Source of the DNA: a virus
Direction: 5' to 3' (one strand)
Virus record (IMG/VR): IMGVR_UViG_3300032334_000224
Coordinates: 1-54,698 of that record
Length of the DNA: 54,698 nucleotides
Positions within the stretch are counted from its first letter, which is position 1. Every line of letters starts with the position of its first letter. The position numbers and the translations under genes were made by a program. Positions 8,735-25,448 of the stretch are shown here, piece after piece. The notes under the pieces are model-generated. The model searched no databases and was not told where the DNA came from. It worked only from the letters and a program-made list of their open reading frames with translations.

Positions 8735-8974
8735 TTATTTAGCCCACATTAGATGATAGTTGACAGCAGTGATTTCGTCATAGAACTCTGCTACTAACTT
8801 GCATTTGCTTGTGGATTTATCCAGCACCAGTTGGCATTGATGCTTGGGCTGTTTCAGCAGCCATTCCACATGATCTATGCCCAGGGTTTTCTGCACCTTG
8901 GGCCAATCTATGTCAATGTACTCGCCTTCACTGGGAAACCACTGCGTTAAAACAACACGTCTAGTCTTCATCAC
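8735..8974 (-). CDS. hypothetical protein, 79 aa
   Basis: Small soluble protein (two adjacent ATGs, 8974 and 8971) that overlaps the end of the helicase gene by 14 bases and so is translationally coupled to it. Trp- and Lys-rich, with a predicted beta-alpha-beta arrangement; WPKVQKTLGIDHVEWLLKQP forms the central helix. Not recognised. Its coupling suggests expression with the replication genes. Confidence 0.6.
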   Translation of the reverse strand: MMKTRRVVLTQWFPSEGEYIDIDWPKVQKTLGIDHVEWLLKQPKHQCQLVLDKSTSKCKLVAEFYDEITAVNYHLMWAK

Positions 8975-10415
8975 TGTCCATGTTATTCAGGATTTCACGT
9001 AGTTTGGTGCTTTCTACATGAGCCCGGACTTTGGGTTTGGCTAGATCAAACCCTTCTTTGGGCGTAGCACGTTCCCACTCTGTGTTTCCAGATTCTTCGC
9101 GATTCTGCTGTATTGTGGTCTTGCGTTTGATATCGTCGATGATACTGCTGGCACCACGTGATGTTGCACCACTGTGCTCCTGCTCATCTTCTGGCAGATC
9201 TGTGATTTTCAGAGATTCTAGATTGAACTCTAAGTCCACTTTCATGCCTACACCACTGCTTGAACGAGTTTTCATCAACTGTATTTGATAGCGTCCACGC
9301 TCACGCATTGCTCGACTGGTAAAGATACCAAACACGTTATCCGCAGTTTGAATCTTACTCAAGCCACCTGAAATATGACTGTGATCAAACTCAACTTCTT
9401 CAACTGCTCCACGATTCAACTGTGCCGCAGTTACAAACACACAGTTCTTTTCAACTGCCAAGTTACGCAGTTCTTCTGACACATACTTGTCTTTGATAAA
9501 CAAGTCTGCTGGTGAAATCTTTTTACTTACAGGCATCAACAAGTCCAAATAGTCAACTAACAACACGTCAACTTTGCTGCCTGTTTTGATTTCATATTCT
9601 TTCAAATAAGCTCGAATGTCATTGGCTGTTTTGCCCGATGGCATATACTTGACCTGTAGTTTGCCTGACTTCTTGCCAATGATACGAACCTTCATTTCCA
9701 CATCATCGATGTCTTTGAAAATCTCTTTGGTTGCAATACCAGTTAACATTGCATCAATACGCATAGACACCAGTTCTTCTGAAAGTTCCAATGTTAGGTA
9801 CACAACGTTCAAGCCCAACAATGCCCAGTTAACACCTAGATTTGCCAAGAACAATGATTTACCTGCTCCTGATCCGCCTGCAAAGATGTTGAGTTCTCCA
9901 CGGTTCATACCACCAAACAGTCTACGATCTAAACTAGGCCATCCTGTAGATACCTGTCCGTTCTTGTCTTTGATCTTCATCAATCGACCGCGTGGATCAG
10001 CAAAGTAATCAGTGCCCATGTCTTTGGCTAGGCCGATCTGTACTGCTTCTTTGACCATTACTTCCACAGCACCGTAGTCATGCTTTTCTAACAGATCTGC
10101 AGAGTTAATGATCGCACGTTCTAGTGCTTTGTGTCGAGTAAACTGTTCGAACTCATCCATGAACCAATCCATGTGTCCATCTTTGAGATCTTCGGGTCTA
10201 ACAAGGTCAGTTCTGCAGTTGGCATTGACCATGTTGTAGTCTGGCAACACGTTATACTCTTTGGCATAGACGTTGATAAACTCTGCCGCATCTTGTAGTT
10301 TGCGGTCAAATAGTGTGTAATCAAAAATACCTTGACAGCGTACAAATGTTTCAGCATCTGACAGCATTATTTCAAGATATAGTTTCTGTACTTCGGGTCC
10401 GTAATCTTTAATCAT
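8961..10415 (-). CDS. 41: replicative DNA helicase, T4 gp41-like
   Basis: 484 residues, close to T4 gp41 (475). This is the DnaB-family hexameric 5'-3' helicase that unwinds the fork with the primase. Walker A GGSGAGKS is at residues 180-187, Walker B VDVLLVDYLDLL at 282-293, and the H3 motif AAQLNR at 330-335; an arginine-finger region follows near RAMRERGR. The N-terminal 130 residues form the helical collar. The C-terminus is acidic and polar. A sigma70-like promoter lies directly upstream (10423-10451). The primase gene is two genes upstream on the same strand. Confidence 0.95.
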   Translation of the reverse strand: MIKDYGPEVQKLYLEIMLSDAETFVRCQGIFDYTLFDRKLQDAAEFINVYAKEYNVLPDYNMVNANCRTDLVRPEDLKDGHMDWFMDEFEQFTRHKALERAIINSADLLEKHDYGAVEVMVKEAVQIGLAKDMGTDYFADPRGRLMKIKDKNGQVSTGWPSLDRRLFGGMNRGELNIFAGGSGAGKSLFLANLGVNWALLGLNVVYLTLELSEELVSMRIDAMLTGIATKEIFKDIDDVEMKVRIIGKKSGKLQVKYMPSGKTANDIRAYLKEYEIKTGSKVDVLLVDYLDLLMPVSKKISPADLFIKDKYVSEELRNLAVEKNCVFVTAAQLNRGAVEEVEFDHSHISGGLSKIQTADNVFGIFTSRAMRERGRYQIQLMKTRSSSGVGMKVDLEFNLESLKITDLPEDEQEHSGATSRGASSIIDDIKRKTTIQQNREESGNTEWERATPKEGFDLAKPKVRAHVESTKLREILNNMDSDED

Positions 10416-10422: not shown

Positions 10423-10451
10423 ATTATATACTCTAGTTAAACACAGGTAAA
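10423..10451 (-). promoter_or_regulatory. sigma70-type promoter of the helicase gene
   Basis: TTTACC (10451-10446) and TATAAT (10428-10423) with a 17 bp spacer, reading into the gp41 gene. The -35 matches at four of six positions and lies in the 3' end of the carbamoyltransferase gene. Confidence 0.6.
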
Positions 10452-11905
10452 CCATACTTTTGACTCCATGTCATCGAATCGCAGATATCGTTGACCATTG
10501 GTTCACCTTTGATGTTGAGGCTGGTGTTAAGCAACATAGGACAGCCAGTTTTTGCATACCATATTTCCAATAACTCTCTAAACTGTGGATTGTCTGTTTT
10601 GTTTACAGTCTGAACTCTGCTGGTTTTATCTATGTGTACCACGGCCGGAAAAGACTCAGATTCCAAACAAGGCGCAATAAATTGCATGTAAGTCGTTGAT
10701 TTTGTTGGCATTTTAAAATAGGAATTTGCGAATTCTTCTAATATTGCAGGAGCGAAGGGTCTGAACTGCTCACGATGCTTAATATCGTTAATAAGAGCCT
10801 TAATTTCCGGACCACGCGGATCTGCTATCAAACTGCGGTTTCCTAGAGCCCTTGGCCCAAACTCAGCACGACCTCTAGCTAGTCCGCAGATTTTGTGTTG
10901 TAGAAGATAATCTACGATCTCGTGATTGTCAGTCTTATAGCCAATGTCGTAGCCTAGATAAACACCAGGCCAATCTATTGCTTGTTTTTGATGTGCCAGT
11001 ACAGCACCAATAGCACTGCCACTGTCTCCGGGTGCAGGCATGATCCAAACATTTTCAAAATACTTGTAGGCTATGGGATTAGCTGAACAGTTAAGAGCAC
11101 ATCCGCCCATCAACACTAGATTCTTGCTGTCAACTAATTTCAAAGCATAATGTAGAGTGCTTTCAAACAGCATTTCATATACTGCCTGTGTTGCCGCAGC
11201 AATGTCGTAGATATCTTGCTGTGAAGTTAAATCAGGTCTCCAATATCTACAGCCTCTATGAAGATTTTCTTTGAAATATAATAGTCCGCCCATGTCCCAT
11301 GTTGGGTAGCTTACAAAGTCGTTCATCATGTCACGAACTAACCCATTGGGGTTTCCCAATGCTGCCATGCCCATTAGGATATATTCTTCTTCGTTGGGTT
11401 TCAGTCCGCATCGCTGTGTCATTGCTGAATAAAACAGCCCTATACTATGCGGATATGATATTGAATATAGTTTTTTAAGTTTGTTACCACAGCCATGCCA
11501 TATTGACAGTGTGTCGTATTCGCCTATTGCATCTATGACAACTACACAGGCTTCGTCAAACCCTGATGTATAGTATCCTGCTGCCGCATGGCTGCGATGA
11601 TGGCTGACAGTTTTTACAGGAGCAGTGATATTAAACTTATTGAGATATCTTTTTACATTGTTATCAATCCACCCTTGTCCAGCTTCAAACTGTCTAAAGG
11701 ATTTTAACCAAGGTTTCTCATACCAACAGACAAGATCAGCAGCACCGAAGTTTTCAGTTGCATATGATACCAGCTCTGCATTAAGATCTGGGTCATTTTT
11801 GATTTTACTGAATCGTTCAGACTCACTGGCAAACACCAGTTTGTTATCATGAAATACTGCTAATGCGGCATTGTGACTAGCCGCTGATAGTCCCCAAGTA
11901 ATCAT
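10433..11905 (-). CDS. NodU/CmcH-family O-carbamoyltransferase
   Basis: 490 residues. The N-terminal Kae1-like domain shows WGLSAASHNAA at the start and SHHRSHAAAGYYTSGF at residues 101-116 (metal-binding His cluster). The C-terminal YrdC-like part carries GRAEFGPRALGNRSLIADPR. Members transfer carbamoyl from carbamoyl phosphate to a hydroxyl of a sugar, antibiotic or, in some phages, hydroxymethylated pyrimidines in DNA. It is shorter than NodU or TobZ (about 570), ending soon after LLNTSLNIKGEPM. No dCMP hydroxymethylase or TET-like enzyme is visible in this window, so a glycan substrate is equally possible. Coupled to the small upstream gene by an ATGA overlap. Confidence 0.85.
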   Translation of the reverse strand: MITWGLSAASHNAALAVFHDNKLVFASESERFSKIKNDPDLNAELVSYATENFGAADLVCWYEKPWLKSFRQFEAGQGWIDNNVKRYLNKFNITAPVKTVSHHRSHAAAGYYTSGFDEACVVVIDAIGEYDTLSIWHGCGNKLKKLYSISYPHSIGLFYSAMTQRCGLKPNEEEYILMGMAALGNPNGLVRDMMNDFVSYPTWDMGGLLYFKENLHRGCRYWRPDLTSQQDIYDIAAATQAVYEMLFESTLHYALKLVDSKNLVLMGGCALNCSANPIAYKYFENVWIMPAPGDSGSAIGAVLAHQKQAIDWPGVYLGYDIGYKTDNHEIVDYLLQHKICGLARGRAEFGPRALGNRSLIADPRGPEIKALINDIKHREQFRPFAPAILEEFANSYFKMPTKSTTYMQFIAPCLESESFPAVVHIDKTSRVQTVNKTDNPQFRELLEIWYAKTGCPMLLNTSLNIKGEPMVNDICDSMTWSQKYGLPVFN

Positions 11906-12018
11906 TTGTAAATGAACGGATCTCTTTCTCGTAGTTCTTTGAGTTTTCTTTTAAGACGATAATGATCTCTAATCGCAATGTAAGGACTTATCAGAAAATC
12001 TATAATCTTTCTAATCAT
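11902..12018 (-). CDS. conserved small basic protein, 38 aa
   Basis: A short frame, MIRKIIDFLISPYIAIRDHY then a charged helix ending KRKLKELRERDPFIYK. The pattern of a hydrophobic amphipathic start and a terminal ERDPFIYK is one I associate with small hypothetical proteins of T4-like aquatic phages. It overlaps the primase stop by eight bases and the carbamoyltransferase start by four, so it bridges the two genes. Function unknown. Confidence 0.6.
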   Translation of the reverse strand: MIRKIIDFLISPYIAIRDHYRLKRKLKELRERDPFIYK

Positions 12019-13036
12019 TTTCTTTTTCTCTCTTTAACTTGTTTTCTAAATTCTTCAAGGCCATCTGCAGTCTAATCTGTCCACGCTGTGCTGTTTTGAT
12101 TAGGTCAACGATTACAAACAGCTTGCCATATCTCTGTACAGCATCGGCACAGTCTTTTACATCTGCATCCCAGTTCGGAAATGCCACAGCCCAGTCGTTT
12201 TCTATGGCTCGATTAATCAAAATCAAACCAGCTTCATCTTGGTCAGGAACTACGATAACTTCGCTGCCTAGACTATTAATTATTCGTTCTTGCTGTTCTG
12301 CTACGTCATTGGTTAACAGTGCTACACCGCCGATTGATAATGCGTCAAACGGGCCTTCACAAACAAACACATACTTCTGTTCTTCTGATTGTGCATCTAC
12401 ATTAAAAACAAAATGCGGGTGTTGATCTGATAGATATTTAGGTTTTCCGTCCCTGATTTTACGAGCAGTACTGCCTACAATTTTACCTTCGTAGGTGAAG
12501 GCGATAATAACCCTCTCATTATATCCTGCTGCAGGAGACCAGTATAGTTGTTTACTGTTAGGATCAAATCCTCTATTGATGACATATTGAATAGTGTCTA
12601 TTAGATTTTGTCTTAGATCTTCAGTAAGACTTATTGGATCACAAGCCCATTCCCATAATGTTTTAGAGTCTTCAGGCAAATCTTTAGGCCCAAAGACAAC
12701 TTTAGCATCTTCGATCTTATGTTCGTATTCTGGACTTTCTGTTTTAAGTGCTTCAAATATCAGTGTGTTGATGTCGTCATCGCTGGCTCCTAGCCATTTA
12801 CAGAGATTTTTAAACTTGTTGGATATTGGACGACCGGGTAACCAGCTGGCTGTGAACTTGCAGTTAAAGCAGTTGAATACTATTCCTTGATCAAACCTTA
12901 GCCCTCCACGTTTACGAGTATCCGGACTATGCCCGCGATGACCGCAACATGGTGCATTGAAACTAGTCCAACCAGAAGGGCTACTCTTAGCACGAGGTGG
13001 GATTAGTGTTCGAAATTTGTCAACAACTAGAGTCAT
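12011..13036 (-). CDS. 61: DNA primase, T4 gp61-like
   Basis: 341 residues (T4 gp61 is 342). It synthesises RNA primers for lagging-strand DNA and works with gp41. The N-terminal zinc-binding module is visible as CCGHRGHS (around residues 30-37) and FNCFNC (55-59). The TOPRIM domain shows VCEGPFDALS (catalytic Glu) and VVPDQDEAG (Asp pair). The C-terminus is a basic helix. A sigma70-type promoter with perfect TTGACA lies just upstream (13043-13071). Confidence 0.92.
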   Translation of the reverse strand: MTLVVDKFRTLIPPRAKSSPSGWTSFNAPCCGHRGHSPDTRKRGGLRFDQGIVFNCFNCKFTASWLPGRPISNKFKNLCKWLGASDDDINTLIFEALKTESPEYEHKIEDAKVVFGPKDLPEDSKTLWEWACDPISLTEDLRQNLIDTIQYVINRGFDPNSKQLYWSPAAGYNERVIIAFTYEGKIVGSTARKIRDGKPKYLSDQHPHFVFNVDAQSEEQKYVFVCEGPFDALSIGGVALLTNDVAEQQERIINSLGSEVIVVPDQDEAGLILINRAIENDWAVAFPNWDADVKDCADAVQRYGKLFVIVDLIKTAQRGQIRLQMALKNLENKLKREKEND

Positions 13037-13042: not shown

Positions 13043-13071
13043 AGTATACTATCTGTATAAGACCTTGTCAA
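13043..13071 (-). promoter_or_regulatory. sigma70-type promoter of the primase gene
   Basis: TTGACA (13071-13066) and TATACT (13048-13043), 17 bp apart, overlapping the 3' end of the upstream virion gene. Confidence 0.85.
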
Positions 13072-13861
13072 CAGTTCCTGTAGTTGGTAGGTGTTTAATT
13101 CTAAAAAAGTTCCATTTACCTACAACATTGGAATATTTTACATTGGAGTTTGTTATCGTTTGAGTGCTGATATCTACCCAGTTTTTTGGTGTAGCACCGT
13201 CATCGATACTGCCTTGAATAATCACTGTACCGGTATAGTTTGTGCTATAGATTTGAAAACTGTGTAGACTCTGCGGTGTAGCGAGTTGACCTTTACAGTC
13301 TATTAAACTACTGACATAATATTTAGGATCAGTGTATCCAGTTGTGCCTGGATTGATATATGCGAATGTGCTGACATTGAGACTTTGTTCGGCAATGCTC
13401 TCGGTGTCTCCAGATACTTCCATAGTTCCTATAACCCCGTACTGGCTGTCCATGTACATGGGTGTTCTTGAAGTCACACGATATTCTGTGGCACTAACTG
13501 TTTCACGGATTTCTTGAACAACGGTATAGTTATAGAAACCCGGTTCTAGATCTAAAAGGTCTGCTCTAGTAATAGTGGCATATACTTTGCCGGTTGCTGC
13601 TGCTACTGTTACGCAATCTTTCTTAACCACTAAGTCATTGGCCTCTCTGGTGATGATGTTAAATACCAAAACAGAGCCAGTTATGTCTGTGGATTTTTGA
13701 TCGGAATTGCGTACCTGTAGATCAATGCGATTATCTACACTACGATAAATTTTTAGATTGCGATTATACACTCTACGATACCTCTCTAGTTGCCAGGAAG
13801 CCAGCGTATTAGTAAATACGTCTATCTTATTTGGATATAAATAAACTGAATTAAGTTGCAT
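13049..13861 (-). CDS. virion structural protein, 270 aa
   Basis: Beta-rich protein with an N-terminal domain that resembles upper-baseplate or fibre-attachment modules (LQVRNSDQKSTDITGSVLVF, then Thr/Val-rich strands). The C-terminal half looks like a jelly-roll discoidin-type fold (LHSFQIYSTNYTGTVIIQGS followed by WVDISTQTI). Probably a tail or baseplate accessory protein. A late-promoter box lies 20 bases upstream, with AAAGG as ribosome binding site. Exact position in the virion unknown. Confidence 0.6.
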   Translation of the reverse strand: MQLNSVYLYPNKIDVFTNTLASWQLERYRRVYNRNLKIYRSVDNRIDLQVRNSDQKSTDITGSVLVFNIITREANDLVVKKDCVTVAAATGKVYATITRADLLDLEPGFYNYTVVQEIRETVSATEYRVTSRTPMYMDSQYGVIGTMEVSGDTESIAEQSLNVSTFAYINPGTTGYTDPKYYVSSLIDCKGQLATPQSLHSFQIYSTNYTGTVIIQGSIDDGATPKNWVDISTQTITNSNVKYSNVVGKWNFFRIKHLPTTGTVDKVLYR

Positions 13862-13890: not shown

Positions 13891-14262
13891 ATGAGAATTA
13901 CAGACAACCTGCAGGAAAACTTCCCGTTCATTAGCGTTATCAACCATGTAGATAAAGAATACGTGGGCATCATTATCAATCAAGATGCTCAAGTGACCAG
14001 CATGTACGATTATGTCGCTATACGTTCTGAAGACGAAAAACGCCGGTTTCTAGAACTAGGAGAAGCTTGGTGGTGGGAGTCTAATCGACAGATACCAATC
14101 AACATTTTCTTAAGCAAAGAGATAATCGAGTTTAGATATGTTATACGCAACTTCAGCACCAAAGACGTAAAAGTAATGCTTGGTCCTGTTACAAGCCTAA
14201 ATGACATTATTGTAAAGCGTATCAAGCGTAAGAGCATCACGCTTGTGAGAAAAGGCAGTTAA
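13891..14262 (+). CDS. conserved T4-like phage hypothetical protein, 123 aa
   Basis: Starts MRITDNLQENFPFISV and carries ELGEAWWWESNRQIPINIF in the middle. I recognise this as a hypothetical family conserved in aquatic T4-like phages, with no function known to me. It is a lone plus-strand gene between two minus-strand blocks and ends in a four-base convergent overlap with the polymerase-like gene. No Shine-Dalgarno sequence is evident, and the only nearby late box (13882-13889) is on the opposite strand, so its promoter is unclear. Confidence 0.7.
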   Translation: MRITDNLQENFPFISVINHVDKEYVGIIINQDAQVTSMYDYVAIRSEDEKRRFLELGEAWWWESNRQIPINIFLSKEIIEFRYVIRNFSTKDVKVMLGPVTSLNDIIVKRIKRKSITLVRKGS

Positions 14263-14837
14263 CTAAACTCGTAACTGATCTGTTCACAGATAAGATTCAT
14301 CTGTACCACAATAGCAGTGGCGTATGCAATAGCATGTGACTTCTTAAAAAAGTATTCGTCATTCTCGGGCTTCGTCCAGATCTCCGTCATAATCGTAGTC
14401 CATTCTTTCCCAATCAGATAACGTTTCGCCGGTCGTATCATAGCTATCACTGCCGCCAACTGGTCGATAGATTTTGGCTTGGTTTGTCTTAGAATAGACC
14501 CATGCCCATTCACATGGAACAGGTTCTGGGTAAACTCGTCTTGCTCTAGTAGATCCCATAGTGGTTCAGTCTCCATTAGTTGAATGAGATGTGCTTCATC
14601 TCTCACGCCTTTATAGATTCCAACATTGAGGAAATCTATTTTAAAATATCCTCGATCTTCTGCTTCGTTATAGGGAACAGCAGATAGTCCACTAACTGCA
14701 TCAACAGGAACTTCATGAAAATACACGCCAGTATTGTGCTTGACCAGTTTTGAATCTTCTTCTCTACTGGCCCTGATGTGTTTGAACAAACCTAATGCTT
14801 GTTCACGATCAAGAAAGTCTATGTCAATATCAGGCAT
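14259..14837 (-). CDS. miniature DNA polymerase III alpha-like protein, 192 aa
   Basis: Colinear with the C-family polymerase (DnaE/PolC) core but drastically shortened. MPDIDIDF at residues 1-8 matches the catalytic PDxDxDF motif; HNTGVYF (34-40) matches HAAGVVI; YFKIDFLNV (64-72) matches the third catalytic Asp motif (KFDFLGL); LFHVNGHGSILRQTKPKSID (106-125) matches the FQLES...LLRxLKP segment; and KKSHAIAYA (165-173) matches NKSHAAAYA of the fingers. DnaE is about 1,160 residues; the PHP, most of the fingers and the C-terminal domains are absent. Polymerase, accessory or regulatory role unknown. It overlaps the next upstream gene by eight bases. Confidence 0.7.
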   Translation of the reverse strand: MPDIDIDFLDREQALGLFKHIRASREEDSKLVKHNTGVYFHEVPVDAVSGLSAVPYNEAEDRGYFKIDFLNVGIYKGVRDEAHLIQLMETEPLWDLLEQDEFTQNLFHVNGHGSILRQTKPKSIDQLAAVIAMIRPAKRYLIGKEWTTIMTEIWTKPENDEYFFKKSHAIAYATAIVVQMNLICEQISYEFS

Positions 14838-15030
14838 TCGGTGGCACCCATTTTGCTGCTTCTGTTTTCTTCCAATAGTTATTACCGTCGGTTACATGTC
14901 CAGTATACACTTCGCCGGTTTCTTTGTCAACCAACATCCATTTTTCCGGACATCTAGTATAAACTACCAGAGTTTTTGGCTCTGGTAGTTCTTCTACTAC
15001 TGTGTTGTCGATTAACAGTCTTGTTCTCAT
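14830..15030 (-). CDS. hypothetical protein, 66 aa
   Basis: Small beta-rich soluble protein (TRLLIDNTVVEELPEPKTLVV then CPEKWMLVDKETGEVYTGH), possibly an SH3- or hairpin-like module. It overlaps the polymerase-like gene downstream by eight bases and the acidic gene upstream by one, so all three are one translational unit. Not recognised; its coupling suggests a replication-related accessory. Confidence 0.6.
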   Translation of the reverse strand: MRTRLLIDNTVVEELPEPKTLVVYTRCPEKWMLVDKETGEVYTGHVTDGNNYWKKTEAAKWVPPNA

Positions 15031-15254
15031 TAGTTAAGTCGCGTTGTTTCAAATAACAATAAGGGCAATGTATCTGCTAGAAACTGTGCGTATTCTTCTG
15101 CATCTTCATCGTCTTCAAATCCTGAAAACTTAACATATACATCTGGAGATTCGTTTCCAACAACTACTTCAATATCAATGTCATCTCTGGAAATAAATTC
15201 TTCGTTTTCTTTTAACTCTTCTTCTTCAATAATAGGTTCTGGTCTTTTTGGCAT
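15030..15254 (-). CDS. acidic hypothetical protein, 74 aa
   Basis: Very acidic N-terminal half (IIEEEELKENEEF) and a C-terminal alpha/beta segment (VYVKFSGFEDDEDAEEYAQF) ending in a helix. DNA-mimic-like charge is notable, but no family is recognised. One-base overlaps with both neighbours indicate translational coupling. Confidence 0.6.
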   Translation of the reverse strand: MPKRPEPIIEEEELKENEEFISRDDIDIEVVVGNESPDVYVKFSGFEDDEDAEEYAQFLADTLPLLLFETTRLN

Positions 15255-15937
15255 TACAGTATCTTCGCCTCCTTGATGACGTCTTTAACTAACTCGGTAT
15301 CTGCAGGCAATGCTTTAAATCTACGCACCCAGAACTGCGGATCTATCATAGGACTGACTATCTCCAACTGTTCATCATTCATGCGTTTTAACAGTTCCTT
15401 GCCTGACTTGCTATTTAATAATATCCACGGAGATATCAATCCTTCTTTAATGTCATGCGTGGCCCTGTTTAAATTTACGTATTGAAAATAGTGTTCCCAC
15501 TGCGCAGAGTTTGTGTCTGCCCAATCCATCATATTTTTAATAGTACGCTGTATTGCTCCGTCTGCAGGTTCTTTCTTTATGAGGTCTGCAATGTATTGCT
15601 CATAGAGTTCGTCTCTGCACCAGTGGTCTAGTTTAACTCCGCTTTTAATAACAAAGTCTATAAACATCTCTGGGTATATAGGAGCGGTGTTGACTAGAAA
15701 ACTACCAAACTTTACAAATGCTGTATAGAAAGAACTTGTGGAAAATTCTTCAAAAGTTTTAGGTTGTTTTGCTTTTTGTGTAAGCTCGTAGAATCTTTGG
15801 AATGTTAACAATCCCATCTGTACGTGCTTTTCGGACTTGCTTAAATGTCTACGTTTCTGTTCGCAAATATGAACTACTAAAGTTTTTTCTTTAGCAAATA
15901 GTTTGTTACAGAATTCGCATTTATAGTTTAACTGCAT
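15254..15937 (-). CDS. zinc-finger phage protein, 227 aa
   Basis: The ATG at 15937 (MQLNYKCEFCNKLFAKE) is preferred to 15970 because it puts the finger at the N-terminus and reduces overlap. Residues 6-30 form a C2H2/C2HC-like zinc finger (C-x2-C then VVHIC and RRH). The remaining 190 residues are helical and aromatic. A hypothetical family with this layout occurs in T4-like aquatic phages. Possible nucleic-acid binding is inferred from the finger only. It sits beside replication genes. Confidence 0.65.
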   Translation of the reverse strand: MQLNYKCEFCNKLFAKEKTLVVHICEQKRRHLSKSEKHVQMGLLTFQRFYELTQKAKQPKTFEEFSTSSFYTAFVKFGSFLVNTAPIYPEMFIDFVIKSGVKLDHWCRDELYEQYIADLIKKEPADGAIQRTIKNMMDWADTNSAQWEHYFQYVNLNRATHDIKEGLISPWILLNSKSGKELLKRMNDEQLEIVSPMIDPQFWVRRFKALPADTELVKDVIKEAKIL

Positions 15938-16400
15938 TGATTTGTTTTTTATCCCAACCAAGTTTCTCACAGTAGGCCTTTATTTCTTTATCAGTTGTGA
16001 TAGCTGCTAATGTTTCAATGTCTGACATTTTCATGTCTGGAAATAGTTCTGCTAAAAACTCTTCTTTTTTATTTTTTTGTCTTTTCAAAGGAAGCCATTC
16101 ATGGAAGAATGTCTTTTTAGTTTCATGACTGCATAGACAAAGTGTCTGCCAAACCAGTTTAGGATGTTTTTGAATATCATTCCAGTTCTTGTTATAGAAC
16201 TCGTTGGTAGTTAATAGAAAATGCTCTTGCAGTTCTCTATTTGAACTTTTTATGTTGCTGATATATCGATTGAGATTCCAAAAATCGCCTTTGATTTCTT
16301 TGCGACCTTCTTCGGAAGAAGCATCCCAAAGTTCTTTGATACCCATGTCAACTGCGGGTATCATGTCTTTGAAAAGGTCTACGTGTTTATTTTGTCCCAT
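15921..16400 (-). CDS. possible clamp-loader small subunit (gp62-like), 159 aa
   Basis: Helical protein with the pattern GDFWNLNRYISN, HFLLTTNEFYNKNW and HPKLVWQTLCLCS. I associate this with phage proteins annotated as clamp loader subunit A, the partner of the gp44 ATPase. The match is from memory of motif order, not alignment, and gp44 and gp45 are not in this window. T4 gp62 is 187 residues. It overlaps the zinc-finger gene downstream by 17 bases. Confidence 0.4.
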   Translation of the reverse strand: MGQNKHVDLFKDMIPAVDMGIKELWDASSEEGRKEIKGDFWNLNRYISNIKSSNRELQEHFLLTTNEFYNKNWNDIQKHPKLVWQTLCLCSHETKKTFFHEWLPLKRQKNKKEEFLAELFPDMKMSDIETLAAITTDKEIKAYCEKLGWDKKQINAVKL

Positions 16401-16684: not shown

Positions 16685-17221
16685 TCACTTCCTTAATACA
16701 AAATGAACGTCCGGTAATCCCGGTTTATATTCTACAGTTTCTGCAACTTCTATCTTAGAAGTTGTGAATGTTTCTTTGATTTTTTCAATCCACCAGTGCG
16801 GCTCATGCACTGACAAATGAGCATTACGACCATCGGGCAGTTTCTTTTTGGCTGGGTAACAGGCCACAATCAGCCATGCTGATTTGGTAAACAGTTGATC
16901 CATTGAGCATAGTGTTTGATCTAGATATTCCGGTTCAATATGTTCAATGACATCGTTTGATACAAGACATTCGTATGTTCTAGTTGGAAAGTTTTCATAT
17001 TCAGGTACTCCTGGATCGTATCCTTCTATAACTGATATGTTTGGAAAATCTGAGATAATCAAAGACATCATACGACCGTGAGCGCATCCAAAATCTAAAA
17101 TGCTCTGTGGCGATTCGACTGATATGAAATCTTTTATGTAAGGATACTTAGGCAGCTTTTCTTTGAAACGATGGCCTTCGGCCATAACTTGTATCTGTTT
17201 TTTATATTCTGCTGAAATCAT
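16685..17221 (-). CDS. class I SAM-dependent methyltransferase, 178 aa
   Basis: Motif I SILDFGCAHGRMM (about residues 39-51), motif II acid in IEGYDPG, and a motif IV-like SNDVIEHIEP fit the Methyltransf_11/23 type. The substrate is not visible; its neighbours are glycosyltransferases, so methylation of a sugar or glycan precursor is likely. It overlaps the GT25 gene by four bases. Confidence 0.8.
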   Translation of the reverse strand: MISAEYKKQIQVMAEGHRFKEKLPKYPYIKDFISVESPQSILDFGCAHGRMMSLIISDFPNISVIEGYDPGVPEYENFPTRTYECLVSNDVIEHIEPEYLDQTLCSMDQLFTKSAWLIVACYPAKKKLPDGRNAHLSVHEPHWWIEKIKETFTTSKIEVAETVEYKPGLPDVHFVLRK

Positions 17222-17907
17222 AAAAGGTCTTTGTTTCTAGTTAACGACAATGCGTGTATTCCCTCATCTGCATACTGAGGATGTAATCTTGCTAAACTTG
17301 GATATGTATTTTGTATATCTACGATATCTAATCCTAGCATATGATCGGTAGGCATAAATCCGTTAGTGTCAATCCATGCCAATAATTTTGCACAAGCAAT
17401 GGGTTTAATGAAATATGCATATGCACCACGAGAATACATGCCACACATTCCTAGATGCATTTCGTCAGGCGGGCGTATGACTAACTCGTCGTTGAGATGA
17501 CTTTCAATCCTTTTATTATATTTCATGTTATAGGGATTTACATTATCGAGCTTTAATACATCTGTAAATCTATCGAGTAAGTCTTCGGGTATAGATCTCA
17601 ACATATACCCGTCGTGTTCTAGTATAAGAAACGGTACATTATCTTCAACACACTTTTTCCATAGATAATAGTGACTTAAAAAACAACCGTATATTCCGGG
17701 ACTGCCTTTCTTAAACTTCTTTACCTCGTGAATATTGAGTCTTTCAAGATGCTGTTTATATTCAAGACCATTAATGGCATCGAAGTATTCCACAGCAATT
17801 CCAAACTTAGCAGCTTGCTCAACACATTCGTCAGCAACTGGTTCGGAAATACTATTTCCTTTGAGCCTTATTATAAAGGTCTTATAGGCTGTTTCATTCG
17901 TTTTAAT
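17218..17907 (-). CDS. glycosyltransferase family 25-like, apparent AUU start
   Basis: The family core is clear: FIIRLKGNS at the N-terminus, EYFDAING, GCFLSHYYLWKKC, FLILEHDG (acidic metal-binding motif) and GAYAYFI. The first in-frame conventional start (GTG 17793) would remove the first Rossmann strand and helix. The frame stays open upstream to 17937 without ATG, GTG or TTG, but AAAGGAG (17921-17915) is followed seven bases later by ATT at 17907, giving 229 residues, a normal GT25 length. I therefore place the start at ATT; a sequencing error or frameshift is the alternative. It overlaps the upstream gene by 37 bases. Confidence 0.7.
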   Translation of the reverse strand: MKTNETAYKTFIIRLKGNSISEPVADECVEQAAKFGIAVEYFDAINGLEYKQHLERLNIHEVKKFKKGSPGIYGCFLSHYYLWKKCVEDNVPFLILEHDGYMLRSIPEDLLDRFTDVLKLDNVNPYNMKYNKRIESHLNDELVIRPPDEMHLGMCGMYSRGAYAYFIKPIACAKLLAWIDTNGFMPTDHMLGLDIVDIQNTYPSLARLHPQYADEGIHALSLTRNKDLL

Positions 17908-18644
17908 AACAATCTCCTTTGCTGTTCGGCCTTGTTGTCACCCTTCTGATGAGCGAAATGATATCTTAACATAGAATGCCCGATTGGATTACTATCGCTG
18001 GCCATTACAGTATTTAGATCAAAGAATAACCATGGATCCCATGATAATCTCAACTGATCAAATAACCACGAATCGTGTGTCTGTTCGTGATCTATAAATT
18101 TTCCTGAGGTATATAGATCTTCCCATTCTTGCATAAACTTATGTATTCTAGGATGATTCATATTGAATGCCATAAATCCGCATTCTGAATATCTAGAGGG
18201 TCTGCCTACATATGTTACCATAAAGTTATCTAAACAAACTGTAGATAAAAATGGCACATCAACTTGATTGATAGTGGTTATATCGCAGTCGAGCCATATC
18301 AGCCACCCCTTAGGTGTTTGTTTTGCTCTATGCCAAATAGCAAATGTTTTGTGAGCAAACTTAATAGCATTAAACTTAAAATCATTTCCTCCTCGTCCAT
18401 TAGCACGGGGATCGTTTTTCCAAGTTTCTGCAAACTCTATGTACTCTGGACACTGTTCATAAAAATCAATCCATTGCATTCTTGATGAAAATGTTTTTCT
18501 TTCAGGTATTGATTTTAGATTTATATTATCGTAATACAAATAGATATCTTGATCTCTAGGCCAACGTTCATCGAGAAATGTCATGTTAGCACAGGCCACT
18601 TCTTCCCAATACGTTTGATTGAAGTTAGTTAGCAGTGTGTACAT
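17871..18644 (-). CDS. GT-A-type glycosyltransferase, 257 aa
   Basis: Contains a DxD-type motif in WLIWLDCDITTI, followed by a GRPSRYSECGFMAFN block and HDSWLFDQLR. The same order (LLWMDADM, GRRGKFSECGLYSMN, HDSFVFDAVR) occurs in the gene at 24001, so the two are paralogs. Such proteins use nucleotide-sugar donors in the cytoplasm. It probably builds a glycan on the phage or host surface; acceptor unknown. It overlaps the methyltransferase gene upstream by 20 bases. Confidence 0.75.
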   Translation of the reverse strand: MYTLLTNFNQTYWEEVACANMTFLDERWPRDQDIYLYYDNINLKSIPERKTFSSRMQWIDFYEQCPEYIEFAETWKNDPRANGRGGNDFKFNAIKFAHKTFAIWHRAKQTPKGWLIWLDCDITTINQVDVPFLSTVCLDNFMVTYVGRPSRYSECGFMAFNMNHPRIHKFMQEWEDLYTSGKFIDHEQTHDSWLFDQLRLSWDPWLFFDLNTVMASDSNPIGHSMLRYHFAHQKGDNKAEQQRRLLLKRMKQPIRPL

Positions 18645-19170
18645 TTTCTAAAAGATAAACGCCTATTTTTTTACCTTCCCAGTGTTGTGTTATCTGTGGA
18701 AAGGTTTCGACCATTTCTTGATGACTCCAATCATCTTTAATGTGTCTTTCATATGGGTTACCCTCTACTTCATCTTGAGGAAAATGAATGATAGGAATAC
18801 TAATAATCACACGTCTGGCACAGGTCAGTAACTTATCCATTAACTCTATCGCTTCATCTTTGGTCATATGTTCTAACACATCACCAGCAAATACAAGATC
18901 AACAGGAGCAAACTGTTGATAATCGATTAATCTAACATCCTGATTTTCTATGTGATTGTAACGATTTCTTAAATCGTATTCTATGATATACGGCTCCCAT
19001 ACTTCGACGCCGATCCATCTAGCATGTCTAAGAAGATCTGATTTATGAGAAAATAGTTTGTGGTAAGTTCCGTTGCCTACGCCTAGGTCGACTACAGTTT
19101 TTACATTTGATGAAAACTCTGTGATCCATAGGCGTATTGCTTCTTTACCTTCTTTGCTGCTAGATGGCAT
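18625..19170 (-). CDS. class I SAM-dependent methyltransferase, 181 aa
   Basis: Motif I is VVDLGVGNGTYHKLF, followed by WIGVEVWEPY, a QDVRLID segment and a motif IV region VFAGDVLEHMTKDEA. Methyltransf_11-like. It precedes the cupin gene on the same strand and overlaps the glycosyltransferase, so it is part of the glycan operon. Substrate unknown. Confidence 0.8.
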   Translation of the reverse strand: MPSSSKEGKEAIRLWITEFSSNVKTVVDLGVGNGTYHKLFSHKSDLLRHARWIGVEVWEPYIIEYDLRNRYNHIENQDVRLIDYQQFAPVDLVFAGDVLEHMTKDEAIELMDKLLTCARRVIISIPIIHFPQDEVEGNPYERHIKDDWSHQEMVETFPQITQHWEGKKIGVYLLENVHTAN

Positions 19171-19181
19171 ATAAGGTTCCT

Positions 19182-19529
19182 TTATTTTTTAGAATAGCCA
19201 ACTGTATCTCGTTGAATATCTTCGTGATCGAACTCTGCCCAATATAGTTCAAATGCCACAGTATTTTCTAGTGCTTCGAACTGATGGTATTCTCCAGGAG
19301 CAACTCGACCATAATCACCTGGTCCAAGAATAGTTTCATCTACTAGGTCGTAGTTATTTTTCCATACACGGATCAACAGTTTACCGGATTCAACAAAGAA
19401 TCCATTCCATTTAAACTGGTGTTTGTGTTTAGAACAGACGCCGCCTTTTTTGGCTTCGATACGATGGAACTCTAACACACCGTTGGCTTCAAGGAGTTCT
19501 GTTTGACCCCATACTTTACCTGCTTTCAT
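19182..19529 (-). CDS. single-domain cupin protein, 115 aa
   Basis: Cupin motif 1 is KHKHQFKWNGFFVESGKLLI, with His residues spaced as metal ligands; motif 2 is GEYHQFEAL. It resembles the small cupins of sugar-nucleotide pathways (mannose-6-phosphate isomerase or ketoisomerase type). In the glycan operon it could isomerise or epimerise a sugar intermediate. The exact reaction cannot be read. Confidence 0.75.
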   Translation of the reverse strand: MKAGKVWGQTELLEANGVLEFHRIEAKKGGVCSKHKHQFKWNGFFVESGKLLIRVWKNNYDLVDETILGPGDYGRVAPGEYHQFEALENTVAFELYWAEFDHEDIQRDTVGYSKK

Positions 19530-19561
19530 GATTCACCTTTCAGTTTGTCTTTTTACTTATC

Positions 19562-20068
19562 TTACAGTATCTTGTCTAACTGCAAAACTTCGCTCTGCCT
19601 TGAAACTTCTTTAACAAAATATGCACATGGAGGATTTGGACCATCATGTAATGGAACTGTTAATAATTGTCCATTTTTCATCTTTGGAAAATACCATTTA
19701 ACATCTTGAAAAATATTTACGATTTCGATGCTCATAAACTCTGCTTTAAAACCTTTTACTGGATTAAAAATAAATGCATCAAATCCACGCTCATTAATAC
19801 TTGTAAGTGGCAATACTTCTGGATCAAGTCCGCATTCTTTGTCGCCTACTACCATGCACCAATCTAAAGGCATTTGTATTTCATAACCACCAATCTTCAA
19901 TAGGATCGCTGGACTATTAAATGATTCAAGGAATATCAAAGGCATAAAAAAGAAATCAGGCTCGTGTGGATTGCTGTTATCTAAAACAGAAAATCTCGTA
20001 TCCTCGTCTACTTCTTCCGGTAGTTCGTTTAAGTCAAAAGACTTGTTATCTAATGTTAATATTCTCAT
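19562..20068 (-). CDS. conserved T4-like phage hypothetical protein, 168 aa
   Basis: Contains FFFMPLIFLESFNSPAILLK, then YEIQMPLDWCMVVGD and LTSINERGFDAFIFNPVKGF, a family I recognise from T4-like aquatic phages, usually near uvsW. Soluble, mixed alpha/beta. Function unknown. It overlaps the UvsW gene by four bases, so it is coupled to recombination functions rather than to the surrounding glycan genes. Confidence 0.65.
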   Translation of the reverse strand: MRILTLDNKSFDLNELPEEVDEDTRFSVLDNSNPHEPDFFFMPLIFLESFNSPAILLKIGGYEIQMPLDWCMVVGDKECGLDPEVLPLTSINERGFDAFIFNPVKGFKAEFMSIEIVNIFQDVKWYFPKMKNGQLLTVPLHDGPNPPCAYFVKEVSRQSEVLQLDKIL

Positions 20069-21519
20069 ATAGTTACCTTGGTTATTGTAAAGGGGTATTT
20101 CGCCTCCTTATAGTATTTCTTTCTCTCAGTTAAATGTCGCTTGGCATATTTGCATCCGCCAGTTATGTCCCATATTTGTACGAAGTCTTTGTCTTCCGCT
20201 TTTCTAATACCTCGCCCAATAGATTGTATAACCCTAACAAAGCTCTTTCCGGGCTCAAGAAGAACCAGATTAAAAATCCTAGGAATATTAATACCCACAG
20301 CGGCCACACCATAAGTCGCCACAATAATCTTGTTATCACTTGTTTTAATTTCGTCATATTCTTCTTTCCTGTCGTCTAGTTTCATACCACCACTAACAAA
20401 TACAGCTTCAGGAATTAAGTCTATTAACTTGTTGCCAGTATCAATTCTATTAATCAATACCAATGTATTTCCTGTCAGGCTCACTTCTTTAACTTTATTA
20501 CTAATCCATGTTAATCTTTTTTCATCAGTAACTAAAAACGTATACTCGTCTTGAAAACTTCTAAAAACTTCGATGTCGTTGGTCTGTAAAATATTAATCT
20601 GTAGATTTGCCAACACACCTTTTTCCTGTAAATCGTGTGCAGATACTTGATTAATCACAGGGCCAATGCTGGCAAGTATGCCTTGAAACTCCCACGCTTC
20701 TTTAGGTACAGTTCCTGTTAAGCCCCAGCGTATGGCACAGTTCTTAAAGTTCTGTGTAAGAAGTTTAGTCAATACTTCTGCTTTTGCCTGGTGAACTTCA
20801 TCAATGATAATGGCATTGACACCTTCGGCAAATTCTGCCAATGTCAGTGCTTCTTCGTCATAGCTTTTCTTATCTAATACATTAAGACTCTGCCACGTAC
20901 AGATTGTGTGAGTCTTGCCTAGTTCTTTTCTATCACCAAAATATACACCAACATCAAGTCCGAGATTTCGATAATCTTCTTCAGTTTGTACAACTAGTGA
21001 TTTGTTAGGAACAATAACCATTGTGCGACCATAAGGCTCACAAAGATGACTGAGAGTAGCTGTTGTAATGGTTTTTCCTGCACCTGTGGCAACCTCTTGT
21101 AGACTCTGCGGATTCTCTAGAAACTTGTTTACTACATCATATTGATAGTCACGTAGTATGATAGGTTGACCTGCATTGGGATGTCCTTTAGGCCAAGTCT
21201 TGCCTTTGTCTGCCCAGAAGTTTTCTGTTACAGGAGTAAATTTAAAGTCATGAGATGTACGAAGATCTTCAACTTCTATGTCATATCCTGCTTCGTCTAT
21301 GATAGGCAATATAATATCAAGATGTGCCAGATATCCAGTTCCGCCAATGCCAAAATATGTTTTAGTTCCGTCCCAACGACCAAGTTTGTATGCCGGCATG
21401 TGTCTTGCATAAGGTAAATCAAACTTTAACTTATTGACAATTTTTCTCCGTGTCTCTACCGACAAGCCGTCGACTTTGATGTTTACTTCATCTTTTATTG
21501 TAAGTTTACAACTCGACAA
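20065..21519 (-). CDS. uvsW: UvsW-like SF2 helicase
   Basis: 484 residues (T4 UvsW about 500). It unwinds branched DNA and R-loops and helps the switch to recombination-dependent replication. Walker A ATGAGKT at residues 144-150, DEVHQ (motif II) at 240-244, a GLTGT motif III and QSIGRGIRK motif VI near residue 437 are all intact. The N-terminal 110 residues form the substrate-binding domain. It overlaps the upstream 395-residue gene by 14 bases. Confidence 0.93.
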   Translation of the reverse strand: MSSCKLTIKDEVNIKVDGLSVETRRKIVNKLKFDLPYARHMPAYKLGRWDGTKTYFGIGGTGYLAHLDIILPIIDEAGYDIEVEDLRTSHDFKFTPVTENFWADKGKTWPKGHPNAGQPIILRDYQYDVVNKFLENPQSLQEVATGAGKTITTATLSHLCEPYGRTMVIVPNKSLVVQTEEDYRNLGLDVGVYFGDRKELGKTHTICTWQSLNVLDKKSYDEEALTLAEFAEGVNAIIIDEVHQAKAEVLTKLLTQNFKNCAIRWGLTGTVPKEAWEFQGILASIGPVINQVSAHDLQEKGVLANLQINILQTNDIEVFRSFQDEYTFLVTDEKRLTWISNKVKEVSLTGNTLVLINRIDTGNKLIDLIPEAVFVSGGMKLDDRKEEYDEIKTSDNKIIVATYGVAAVGINIPRIFNLVLLEPGKSFVRVIQSIGRGIRKAEDKDFVQIWDITGGCKYAKRHLTERKKYYKEAKYPFTITKVTI

Positions 21520-22693
21520 TTTCTTGTTTCCCTATAGTAGTTGGTTTAATATTTCCCAGATATATCACGCAATAATGCGAATCTAGCCATTGCTTTACTA
21601 GCTGGCTGCTGTTGGGAAATAAGTTATTTGTTACTAACAGTTTAACAGGTTTTTCATCGTGAAACAACCACTTAGCTGGTCTATGATTAAAAATATAAAT
21701 CCTGCCATCTTCAACTTTTCCACCATGCCCGCTTTCGCTGACCCATTGATTGAAGTTATTAGTATCAAGTTCTTTGCTTAATCTAAAACAAACACGGACA
21801 TCTTCTTTTGGTATGTTCGATTTTACTACATCTTCGGAAAATGTTCGAACCCATGCTTGTGCGTCACCGGCCCGATCTAATATAATACATACCTTTCCTT
21901 GAACTTGAGAGCAGAGTGTTAGAAATGTGGTATTGTCTTTTATCCAAAACAGATTTTGATCAGAGGATGCGATTTTTTCCACTAACGGATTTACAACAGC
22001 ATTTGGATTTTTCATATATCTGAATCCCATGCTCTTTGCCAACATCAAATCATGTTCAACAACACCGTTAGCGTTATGAGAAAACCAAGTTTCGGTTTCT
22101 ACATCGGCATTTTTCAAACTTACCCAGTCTGAAGATATTTCAGCAACTGGCAAAATGTCATCTTGTGTCTGCCAAATTTCTTCAACTTCACCTACGGCGA
22201 TCATGAAAGTATCGTCAATATCAAAGTTATGTTTTTTAGCAAACTCGTATAACTGAATGAGATTAAAATCATAGAGATTTAGTATTCTCAACTTTCTTTC
22301 ATGATCCCAAACAGAGCTAAATCTATCAATTTCTTCCTCAAACTCTTTTTTTAGTTGATAAGGAAATCTCAAACATACTACAGGAAGTCCTTGCGGATTT
22401 ATTTCTACAAATATTTTCTTGCTAAGGTCAATGACTCGAAACGGGTTCTTCCATTTAGGTTCTACCAACAGATGTCGATAGTCAAATCCTGCTACAAAAA
22501 TGAGATTTTTGTGTTTTTCTAAGATTTTTAATATGTAGTTGGCCTGTGCTTCTGTAAGCTGTTTGCCAGCCTCAATAAGATTGCAAAAGTTTGTAGCGGC
22601 AGATTTATCAAGGCGATTGATATTGATTCGTTGGTTGTCTGCAAAGTCTAAAAACTCAACAAAAACGTCTTCAATGTATTCAGATGTTAACAT
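21506..22693 (-). CDS. unrecognised 395-aa protein coupled to UvsW
   Basis: Not recognised. The N-terminal helical part has QLTEAQANYILKILEKH, typical of a small helical domain in DNA enzymes. The middle (PVVCLRFPYQLKKEFEEEI and KLRILNLYDFNLIQLYEF) and the C-terminal half resemble alpha/beta folds, with VCIILDRAGDAQAW as a possible Rossmann strand. I see no Walker A motif. Coupling to UvsW by a 14-base overlap and its own sigma70 promoter suggest a replication or recombination accessory, possibly a degenerate helicase-like partner. Confidence 0.6.
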   Translation of the reverse strand: MLTSEYIEDVFVEFLDFADNQRININRLDKSAATNFCNLIEAGKQLTEAQANYILKILEKHKNLIFVAGFDYRHLLVEPKWKNPFRVIDLSKKIFVEINPQGLPVVCLRFPYQLKKEFEEEIDRFSSVWDHERKLRILNLYDFNLIQLYEFAKKHNFDIDDTFMIAVGEVEEIWQTQDDILPVAEISSDWVSLKNADVETETWFSHNANGVVEHDLMLAKSMGFRYMKNPNAVVNPLVEKIASSDQNLFWIKDNTTFLTLCSQVQGKVCIILDRAGDAQAWVRTFSEDVVKSNIPKEDVRVCFRLSKELDTNNFNQWVSESGHGGKVEDGRIYIFNHRPAKWLFHDEKPVKLLVTNNLFPNSSQLVKQWLDSHYCVIYLGNIKPTTIGKQEIVEL

Positions 22694-22699
22694 TTTTAA

Positions 22700-22728
22700 A
22701 GTATAACACTTTAAAAAATGAATGTCAA
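22700..22728 (-). promoter_or_regulatory. sigma70-type promoter of the uvsW unit
   Basis: TTGACA (22728-22723) and TATACT (22705-22700) with 17 bp between, directly before the gene starting at 22693. The mRNA leader would be only a few bases long. Confidence 0.85.
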
Positions 22729-22735
22729 CAAAAAA

Positions 22736-23569
22736 TTACAATTTATTTTTAAGAAGTCTTGATAACGGAATGCCTTGCGATATTTCGTCAACAGTCCATT
22801 CTGTATGACAAAGTTTTGCAAACCATTCAGTTCTGTCTGGTAGTGAAATTTTCTCAAGATTTTCGAAATTTCCAGAGACAGGAGAGGCCAAACTTGAAGA
22901 ATCACAGATCACCGGAATGCCAGCTATTGCTGCCTGTACTGCCGGACCACTGTTGTGATTAATCACGCAATGATAGTTATAAAAAATATCGAAACCGTCA
23001 TAAGTGTTAGGAACACGGTTAGGAGTTTCAAAAATAATTCCTGGAATTTTCAGGGGAAAAAGTGACCGAGGATGGGGTCTTACAATAATTCTTCGATCAG
23101 TAAGTTGCCTAACTTTTGCAACCATGCCTTCAGCCCATTGACGCATGGTAGGTTGACCTTCCCATTGAAGACTTTGTTCATGTTGACAAGCTATGAGAAT
23201 TTCACCTCTTCGTTTTTTCTGTTCAGGCTCCAGAAAAATCCCCAATTTTTCATGGCGATTAGCATCTATGTCATCTGAGTTGCCAAACTCTCCTAACCCG
23301 TTGATGTTATTAAAACATAGTCTCCATGTTTCGCCTCTGCTAAGGTTTCCTACTTCGATAATGATCACTGGTTTGTTTTCAGCTCGACATTTTTCGTAGA
23401 TAGCTTTGTTGGCTAACATGCGTCCCCACCATAAAACTGACCAAATTACCGCTATATCTTCGGCATGATCTACTACTGAATGTCCTAAGGCCGACACCCC
23501 TTGTTCAAAGGCGTCGAACACCGGTCCACTGTTTAATGCGCCGTGCTCTCGATAAAGTTTGAATCTCAT
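22736..23569 (-). CDS. capsule-synthesis-like glycosyltransferase, 277 aa
   Basis: The ATG at 23569 (MRFKLYREHGALNSGPVFDA) is chosen over 23698, which would extend across the divergent gene. Motifs include an RRIIVRPHPRS strand-turn, INHNSGPAVQAAIAGIPVI and a closing LPDRTEWFAKLCHTEWTVDE. These are shared with the genes at 27405, 28282 and 29925, and they resemble the capsule polysaccharide synthesis (KpsC/Capsule_synth) type of GT-B proteins. Probably adds a sugar in the cytoplasm; donor and acceptor unknown. Confidence 0.65.
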   Translation of the reverse strand: MRFKLYREHGALNSGPVFDAFEQGVSALGHSVVDHAEDIAVIWSVLWWGRMLANKAIYEKCRAENKPVIIIEVGNLSRGETWRLCFNNINGLGEFGNSDDIDANRHEKLGIFLEPEQKKRRGEILIACQHEQSLQWEGQPTMRQWAEGMVAKVRQLTDRRIIVRPHPRSLFPLKIPGIIFETPNRVPNTYDGFDIFYNYHCVINHNSGPAVQAAIAGIPVICDSSSLASPVSGNFENLEKISLPDRTEWFAKLCHTEWTVDEISQGIPLSRLLKNKL

Positions 23570-23577
23570 TTTTGCCT

Positions 23578-23585
23578 CATAAATA
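23578..23585 (+). promoter_or_regulatory. T4-type late promoter box
   Basis: CATAAATA on the plus strand, 21 bases before the start at 23607, in the short divergent gap between two glycan genes. Confidence 0.5.
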
Positions 23586-23606
23586 ACAGAGTGTTTAATT
23601 ATAGTT

Positions 23607-23999
23607 ATGAATAAAATCGTAAAACGCCTGACAAAGCTGACAGGAATTCCAAATAACGCAGTTGTAATAGGTACTGGGTTTGGGATAATGTCTGACATAC
23701 TGGAAACCTATAAATCGGTCTTTCTTTTCTCAGATAATCCTCCAACATTTAAATCAAGAACTCTAATATATAGAGAAAACTTTGATGATATTGCACCATT
23801 ATGCGATATCACAGCCATTATTGTAGACCGAGATAAGGTCTACAGCTTGTCACACCTTAGACCCTTGTGGTCTAGAGCAAGACCTGTTATATTTGTTGAA
23901 GGCGATGAAATAATTAACCGAACTGAATCAAAAATATTATGGGACGGCGGTTACCGTCCCGTAGAACAAGTTGGCTTTTGCCACGTATGGAAACTATAA
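23607..23999 (+). CDS. hypothetical protein of the glycan island, 130 aa
   Basis: Alpha/beta protein with an N-terminal VVIGTGFGI turn that resembles a Rossmann strand-loop and a middle segment DITAIIVDRDKVYSL. No catalytic motif is clear. First gene of a five-gene plus-strand operon (two glycosyltransferases, FkbM methyltransferase, epimerase). Role unknown. Confidence 0.55.
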   Translation: MNKIVKRLTKLTGIPNNAVVIGTGFGIMSDILETYKSVFLFSDNPPTFKSRTLIYRENFDDIAPLCDITAIIVDRDKVYSLSHLRPLWSRARPVIFVEGDEIINRTESKILWDGGYRPVEQVGFCHVWKL

Positions 24000-24000
24000 A

Positions 24001-24804: not shown

Positions 24805-25448
24805 TAGAATCACATGGATTTTGGTTTCCGGACTATGACACACATTTTCCGAAGATGCTGGCGAAAGGAATGAAGAATGACGGCGTTGCCAGATATCAAT
24901 GGCGGGCTCGAGACGCTGCGATTGAAGCCTGCGATAATAAAAGAATATGTATTGACATTGGAGCCAATGTTGGTCTATGGGCCTGTGACCTTGTTAAATC
25001 TTTTGTAGAAGTTATTGCATTTGAACCAGTGGCAGAGTTTAGAGAATGCTTTGAAAAGAATGTTAAATCGCCTAACTATAAAATAATGCCAGTGGCATTA
25101 GGACGAGAAGAGTCATTTATTGAAATGAATGTGGTTCAAGGTAATACAGGGCACAGTCATATCAATCCGGAGTCATTTGGTAAAGGTACTATTCCATTAA
25201 AAACACTAGATAGTTATAATTTTACCAATGTTGATATGATAAAGATTGATGTCGAAGGATTCGAGGAAGAAATACTAGCAGGTGCAATAAAAACTATTAC
25301 ATTAAATAAACCTGTTATTGTAGTAGAGCAACAGAAGCATGAATACAAAGATGCTATGACTGATTTGCCTTCTATTAAAATCTTAGAAAACATGGGATAT
25401 CGAGTAATCGGACAAGTTAAGAAAGACTGGATACTTAAATGTCAATAA
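24801..25448 (+). CDS. FkbM-family methyltransferase, 215 aa
   Basis: Motif I ICIDIGANVGLWACDL and the family's VDMIKIDVEGFEEEIL block are clear, along with IPLKTLDSYNF just before it. FkbM enzymes O-methylate sugars and related hydroxyls. It is coupled by ATGA to the glycosyltransferase before it, so it likely caps or decorates the same glycan. Confidence 0.85.
   Translation: MIESHGFWFPDYDTHFPKMLAKGMKNDGVARYQWRARDAAIEACDNKRICIDIGANVGLWACDLVKSFVEVIAFEPVAEFRECFEKNVKSPNYKIMPVALGREESFIEMNVVQGNTGHSHINPESFGKGTIPLKTLDSYNFTNVDMIKIDVEGFEEEILAGAIKTITLNKPVIVVEQQKHEYKDAMTDLPSIKILENMGYRVIGQVKKDWILKCQ

What the first reader, a model, noticed from the sequence alone, without database searches (positions are those of the whole stretch)
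14259..14837. A 192-residue miniature of DNA polymerase III alpha with catalytic aspartates kept
Five motifs of the C-family polymerase core appear in the right order (PDIDIDF, HNTGVY, FKIDFLN, the FHVNGHGSILRQTKP segment, KKSHAIAYA), but the chain is about one sixth of DnaE. T4-like phages use a family B polymerase (gp43), so a shrunken family C relative is unexpected. It could be a real minimal nucleotidyl-transferring enzyme, a decoy that binds host replisome parts, or a regulator. It sits in a replication cluster, coupled to two small unknown genes.
Basis: partly seen in the sequence, partly recalled or inferred. Interest (0 to 1): 0.7.

Follow-up and report, generated by a model that had tools for sequence, protein, structure and literature searches.

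The report
Half of a split mini DNA polymerase
This small phage gene makes one half of a stripped-down bacterial-type DNA polymerase whose other half is encoded far away in the genomes of related giant phages; the arrangement was described in 2021, its activity has not been tested in anything I could find, and the active-site residues of both halves never vary in the sequences I compared.

Summary
The ORF is real and on the minus strand (14837→14259, 192 aa). It is a true family C polymerase relative, but not a complete miniature enzyme. It is the C-terminal half of a catalytic palm plus trimmed fingers. The N-terminal half, with the GRGS nucleotide-binding motif, is a separate gene of about 170 aa, found 15-224 kb away in related jumbo phages. 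In all 92 N-half genes read, the ORF stops within 41 aa of the GxGRGS motif, where E. coli DnaE F391-L392 lies; the present protein starts at DnaE M399. The thumb is gone, and no PHP or tail domains are encoded. Across 86 C-halves and 71 N-halves the residues matching DnaE D401, D403, K553, D555 and G361-R362-G363-S364 never vary. Of 60 listed phage records with this gene, 59 also have the N-half. Relatives also carry a family B polymerase. I found no fused version. Best reading: two chains assemble one catalytic site that helps the family B replicase. Iyer et al. 2021 (PMC7824862) already described this split minimal Pol III alpha; my additions are split point, invariance, co-occurrence, synteny and models. 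Activity is inferred. The window is a fragment lacking the partner gene and polymerase B.

The parts
14259..14837 (-). Gene B: C-terminal half of the split minimal Pol III alpha (palm strands with D3/D5/D7, H34-G37, K66-x-D68; trimmed fingers with R135-P136-x-K138 and K165-K166-S-H168)
14830..14837 (-). 8-nt overlap (ATGCCTGA) of gene B start with the stop of the upstream 66-aa gene, suggesting translational coupling
   Evidence: read from sequence
14830..15030 (-). 66-aa gene upstream, phrog_4098 C-terminal match (8.4e-10); present in 23 of 88 B loci
15030..15254 (-). 74-aa acidic small gene, no family above chance; present in 54 of 88 B loci
15254..15970 (-). phrog_11058 protein with a C2H2-like zinc finger; in 86 of 88 B loci, same strand
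13891..14262 (+). phrog_11637 gene, convergent with gene B and overlapping it by 4 nt (shared TTAA double stop); in 84 of 88 B loci, always convergent
13049..13861 (-). Gene of a PHROGs 'virion structural' family between B and the primase; in 74 of 88 B loci
12011..13036 (-). T4 gp61-type DNA primase (phrog_47, Toprim); in 75 of 88 B loci
8961..10415 (-). T4 gp41-type DnaB-like replicative helicase (PF03796, 1.6e-18); in 66 of 88 B loci

Best explanation
The gene encodes the C-terminal (metal- and template-binding) subunit of a two-chain, thumb-less, PHP-less family C nucleotidyltransferase. Its partner, gene A (N-terminal, nucleotide-binding, ending after GxGRGS...EFL), lies near the clamp-loader gene elsewhere in the phage genome. 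The two chains most likely associate without covalent joining, so that the GRGS loop of A meets D3, D5, K66 and D68 of B and rebuilds the Pol-beta-like palm. I infer that this heterodimer makes short stretches of DNA (primer extension, gap filling or repair) beside the phage's own family B replicase. Shown by sequence: homology, split point, invariance of the active-site residues, co-occurrence, synteny. Inferred: heterodimer formation, DNA synthesis, biological role.
For: Partner gene with PF07733 match found in 4/4 complete phage genomes searched first and 5/5 more phage records; 59 of 60 listed phage records with B also have A, the exception being a 109-kb record. 92/92 A ORFs read stop within 41 aa of GxGRGS. 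A aligns to E. coli DnaE 322-392 and B begins at M399, so they are complementary without overlap. Invariant in 86 B: D3 D5 D7 H34 G37 K66 D68 R135 P136 K138 H168 Y172; in 71 A: G134 G136 R137 G138 S139. AF2 models are confident (pLDDT 91.2 and 87.8) and both find Pol III alpha first in the PDB. Distances of A and B correlate over 23 paired genomes, r = 0.86, 0 of 5000 permutations as high. B sits beside primase and helicase, A near the gp44-type clamp loader in 64 of 93 A loci. Family B polymerase matches over cut-off in 4/4 genomes.
Against: No complex was modelled and no activity is known. TM-scores are moderate (0.48 and 0.47 on query length). The correlation of distances also follows from shared phage ancestry. 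Some long contigs have only one half: G001 (199 kb) and G005 (280 kb) lack A, G027 (349 kb) lacks B, though all are linear records that may be fragments. Loss of the thumb would be expected to weaken primer-template binding.
Confidence: 0.62

Rival explanations
1. The pair is a catalytic Pol-beta-fold nucleotidyltransferase that no longer copies a template: it adds nucleotides to DNA or RNA ends or modifies another substrate.
For: Nucleotidyltransferase residues are invariant while the thumb is lost. The Pol beta fold is used by many non-polymerase transferases (general knowledge).
Against: Finger motifs typical of family C (RP-x-K, KKSH, invariant H168 and Y172) are kept, and the gene neighbourhood is replication.
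Confidence: 0.17
2. The two proteins are non-catalytic replisome parts, or a decoy or regulator that binds host Pol III partners.
For: Missing thumb and the absence of PHP, OB and clamp-binding tail domains would suit a binding role; the phages already have a family B polymerase.
Against: All mapped metal- and triphosphate-site residues are invariant over 86 and 71 diverged sequences of the two genes, which a decoy would not need.
Confidence: 0.13
3. Gene B is a decaying remnant of a DnaE acquired by the phage.
For: It is about one sixth of DnaE.
Against: Intact in the 86 sequences compared (mean pairwise identity 45% in the 23-pair set), same synteny in 84-86 of 88 loci, invariant active site.
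Confidence: 0.02
4. The halves are joined into one chain by protein or RNA trans-splicing.
For: Split genes joined by split inteins are known for bacterial DnaE and phage proteins (general knowledge).
Against: A ends at and B begins at the polymerase sequence itself with no intein-sized extension in the 92 A and about 88 B loci read.
Confidence: 0.03

Closest known systems
Split minimal DNA polymerase III alpha of group 2.2 jumbo phages (Iyer et al. 2021, PMC7824862)
   Different: No difference in kind; this is a further member from a metagenomic contig. Split point, residue invariance, co-occurrence counts, gene neighbours and models given here were not in the passages of that paper I read.
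phrog_11778 (gene B) and phrog_11127 (gene A), both labelled 'DNA polymerase'
   Same: Window protein matches phrog_11778 at 2.6e-70 over nearly its whole length; partner genes match phrog_11127.
   Different: The two are separate families in the library.
Bacterial Pol III alpha (DnaE, E. coli; Taq 2hpi, 4iqj; M. tuberculosis 5lew, 7pu7)
   Same: Palm active-site residues D401, D403, K553, D555 and GRGS, and finger motifs, in order.
   Different: Two chains instead of one, about 360 instead of 1160 residues; no PHP, thumb, OB, helix-hairpin-helix or clamp/tau-binding parts.
Truncated Pol III alpha CBB_328 of phage CBB (PMC5259590)
   Same: Gene A of that phage; authors noted its small size, 172 aa.
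   Different: Gene B and the split were not recognised in the passages I read.

Membership tests
Split minimal Pol III alpha of jumbo phages | Stand-alone C-terminal half with DxD plus third Asp and finger region | tested here: met
Split minimal Pol III alpha of jumbo phages | N-terminal GRGS half encoded by a distant gene | tested here: inconclusive
   Met in 9/9 phage records searched and in contigs with close B relatives such as G003 and G007; not found in the window record, which is only a 54.7-kb fragment
Split minimal Pol III alpha of jumbo phages | Family B DNA polymerase in the same phage | tested here: inconclusive
   Met in 4/4 relatives; absent from the window fragment
Split minimal Pol III alpha of jumbo phages | Phage-specific | tested here: met
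   Bacterial genome contigs gave only two weak partial matches (31-34% identity), not inspected, probably ordinary DnaE
Bacterial DnaE/PolC family C polymerase | Palm catalytic residues D401/D403/D555 | tested here: met
Bacterial DnaE/PolC family C polymerase | Single-chain palm including GRGS strand | tested here: not met
Bacterial DnaE/PolC family C polymerase | PHP domain | tested here: not met
   No PHP match in gene A or B; A matches DnaE models only from about position 215-280 onward
Bacterial DnaE/PolC family C polymerase | Thumb domain (E. coli about 433-510) | tested here: not met
   D7 and D68 are 61 residues apart against 150 between D405 and D555 in DnaE; HNTGVY follows directly
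Bacterial DnaE/PolC family C polymerase | DNA synthesis activity | not testable with these tools
   no experiment found in the library

The most novel reading that the evidence does not exclude
An obligate heterodimeric DNA polymerase whose single active site is built at the contact of two unlinked gene products, without thumb or PHP, working beside a family B replicase, for example in primer hand-over from the neighbouring primase. It would be among the smallest template-dependent family C enzymes.
Probability: 0.4. Interest if true: 0.8.

Novelty: new member of a known kind. Interest (0 to 1): 0.5.

Why it matters
If active, the pair gives a minimal family C polymerase core in about 360 residues, with the nucleotide-binding and metal-binding halves separable in the tube. 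That would let one ask what the thumb, PHP and tail parts of the bacterial replicase are needed for. It would also be a case of a bacterial-type polymerase working inside a family B replication system. Iyer et al. used it to argue for a relic of pre-LUCA replication. The match of gene A to DnaE sequence between the PHP domain and the palm (TIGR00594 from position 257) leans to a reduced DnaE instead, but does not decide it.

Tried and rejected
Protein search with one A sequence in viral contigs found nothing; an alignment of four found at least 199. A DNA pattern for a fused A-B gene was not accepted by the tool, so absence of fusions rests on the 92 A and 88 B loci read. Bacterial genomes: only two weak partial matches. 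Literature after 2021: no experimental follow-up found; subscription papers and preprints are not covered.

Full report
Observation. The ORF lies on the minus strand of the window, 14837 to 14259, and encodes 192 residues beginning MPDIDIDF; the plus strand there is not open. The start overlaps the stop of the upstream 66-aa gene by eight bases (ATGCCTGA). The 3' end shares a TTAA double stop with the convergent gene 13891-14262.

Homology. PHROGs places it in phrog_11778, 'DNA polymerase', E 2.6e-70, with a weaker match to the DnaE-like phrog_405. tblastn finds it in 63 phage records; apart from a few short partial records (86-110 kb) those listed are jumbo phages of 280-490 kb such as RaK2, 121Q, CBB, PA5oct, XacN1, SCTP-2 and Atu_ph07. 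At least 571 relatives exist in IMG/VR. Curated bacterial models and PDB sequence profiles match weakly, but the pieces fall in the correct order on Pol III alpha.

The missing half. Searching complete genomes of four relatives with the Pfam palm model PF07733 did not hit this gene but a second one, about 170-180 aa, far away: 34 kb in RaK2, 43 kb in Paride, about 180 kb in Atu_ph07, about 224 kb in Phosso. It ends ...GVGRGSSVASYVLFLIGIHRVNSITYELDFDEFLN and stops, the sequence that precedes the PDxDxDF strand in DnaE. Five further phages have it; the shortest A-B distance I saw is about 15 kb (CM1, XacN1). Of the 60 B records listed, 59 are in the list of A records; the exception is a 109-kb record.

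Exact split. In 92 A loci every ORF ends within 35-41 residues counted from the start of GxGRGS. The A profile aligns to E. coli DnaE 322-392 (hhalign 323-395); B starts at the equivalent of M399. No intein-like extension and no fusion was seen.

Active site. In E. coli numbering B carries D401, D403, D405, K553 and D555 as D3, D5, D7, K66 and D68; A carries G359, G361, R362, G363 and S364 as G134, G136, R137, G138 and S139 (A numbered on L103). All are invariant, in 86 B and 71 A sequences. D7 and D68 are 61 residues apart against 150 between D405 and D555 in E. coli; the H34-x-x-G37 strand (HNTG, like HAAG in DnaE by my reading) follows at once, so the thumb is removed and the palm kept. Finger elements R135-P136-x-K138, H168 and Y172 are also invariant.

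Structure. AlphaFold2 gives pLDDT 91.2 for B and 87.8 for an A protein. For both, the top PDB matches are Pol III alpha. TM-scores are near 0.48, as expected for halves of a domain with the thumb gone, but this is not proof of assembly.

Context. Upstream of B a zinc-finger-like protein (phrog_11058) is present in 86 of 88 loci, downstream the convergent phrog_11637 gene in 84, then primase (75) and helicase (66); A has the clamp-loader gp44 gene nearby in 64 of 93, many of the rest being cut short. The window also holds UvsW-like helicase, UvsX-like recombinase and single-strand-binding protein genes. Family B polymerase is present in the four relatives tested. A DnaQ-like exonuclease gene lies in the same region in RaK2, CBB and XacN1.

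Prior knowledge. [quoted passage not shown] Earlier authors noted single halves. I found no experiment.

Limits. The window is a 54.7-kb fragment; its own partner gene and polymerase B are not in it. Contigs carrying close relatives of B (G003 and G007, whose B copies L040 and L063 are 74% and 73% identical to the window protein) do contain gene A. A few long contigs show only one half, unexplained but possibly incomplete. Catalysis, dimer formation and role are inferences.

Noticed in passing
window 15254-15970 (-): C2H2-like zinc-finger protein (phrog_11058) is as tightly linked to gene B as any gene (86 of 88 loci); possible functional partner, function unknown.
   Followed up: partly
window 13891-14262 (+): phrog_11637 gene is always convergent with gene B (84 of 88 loci) although neighbours are on the other strand; in the window the two share a TTAA double stop.
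   Followed up: partly
window 10433-11905 (-): Carbamoyltransferase (PF02543/PF16861) sits between the primase and helicase genes, which are adjacent in several of the phages examined.
   Followed up: no
window 16685-31492: Block of methyltransferase, glycosyltransferase-like, epimerase and cytidylyltransferase genes inside the replication region, probably sugar modification.
   Followed up: no
Pseudomonas phage Paride OR805295.1 about 88906-92683: Family B polymerase matches lie in two ORFs (825 and 379 aa) about 2.5 kb apart, so that polymerase may also be interrupted, perhaps by an intein or mobile intron.
   Followed up: no
L004 6721-7542, L102 2730-3575, L099 10865-11458: DnaQ-like exonuclease gene in the same region as gene B in RaK2, CBB and XacN1; could proofread for the split polymerase.
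   Followed up: no
G027 (contig of L153, 349 kb) and G005 (contig of L048, 280 kb): Long contigs with only one half of the pair detected.
   Followed up: partly
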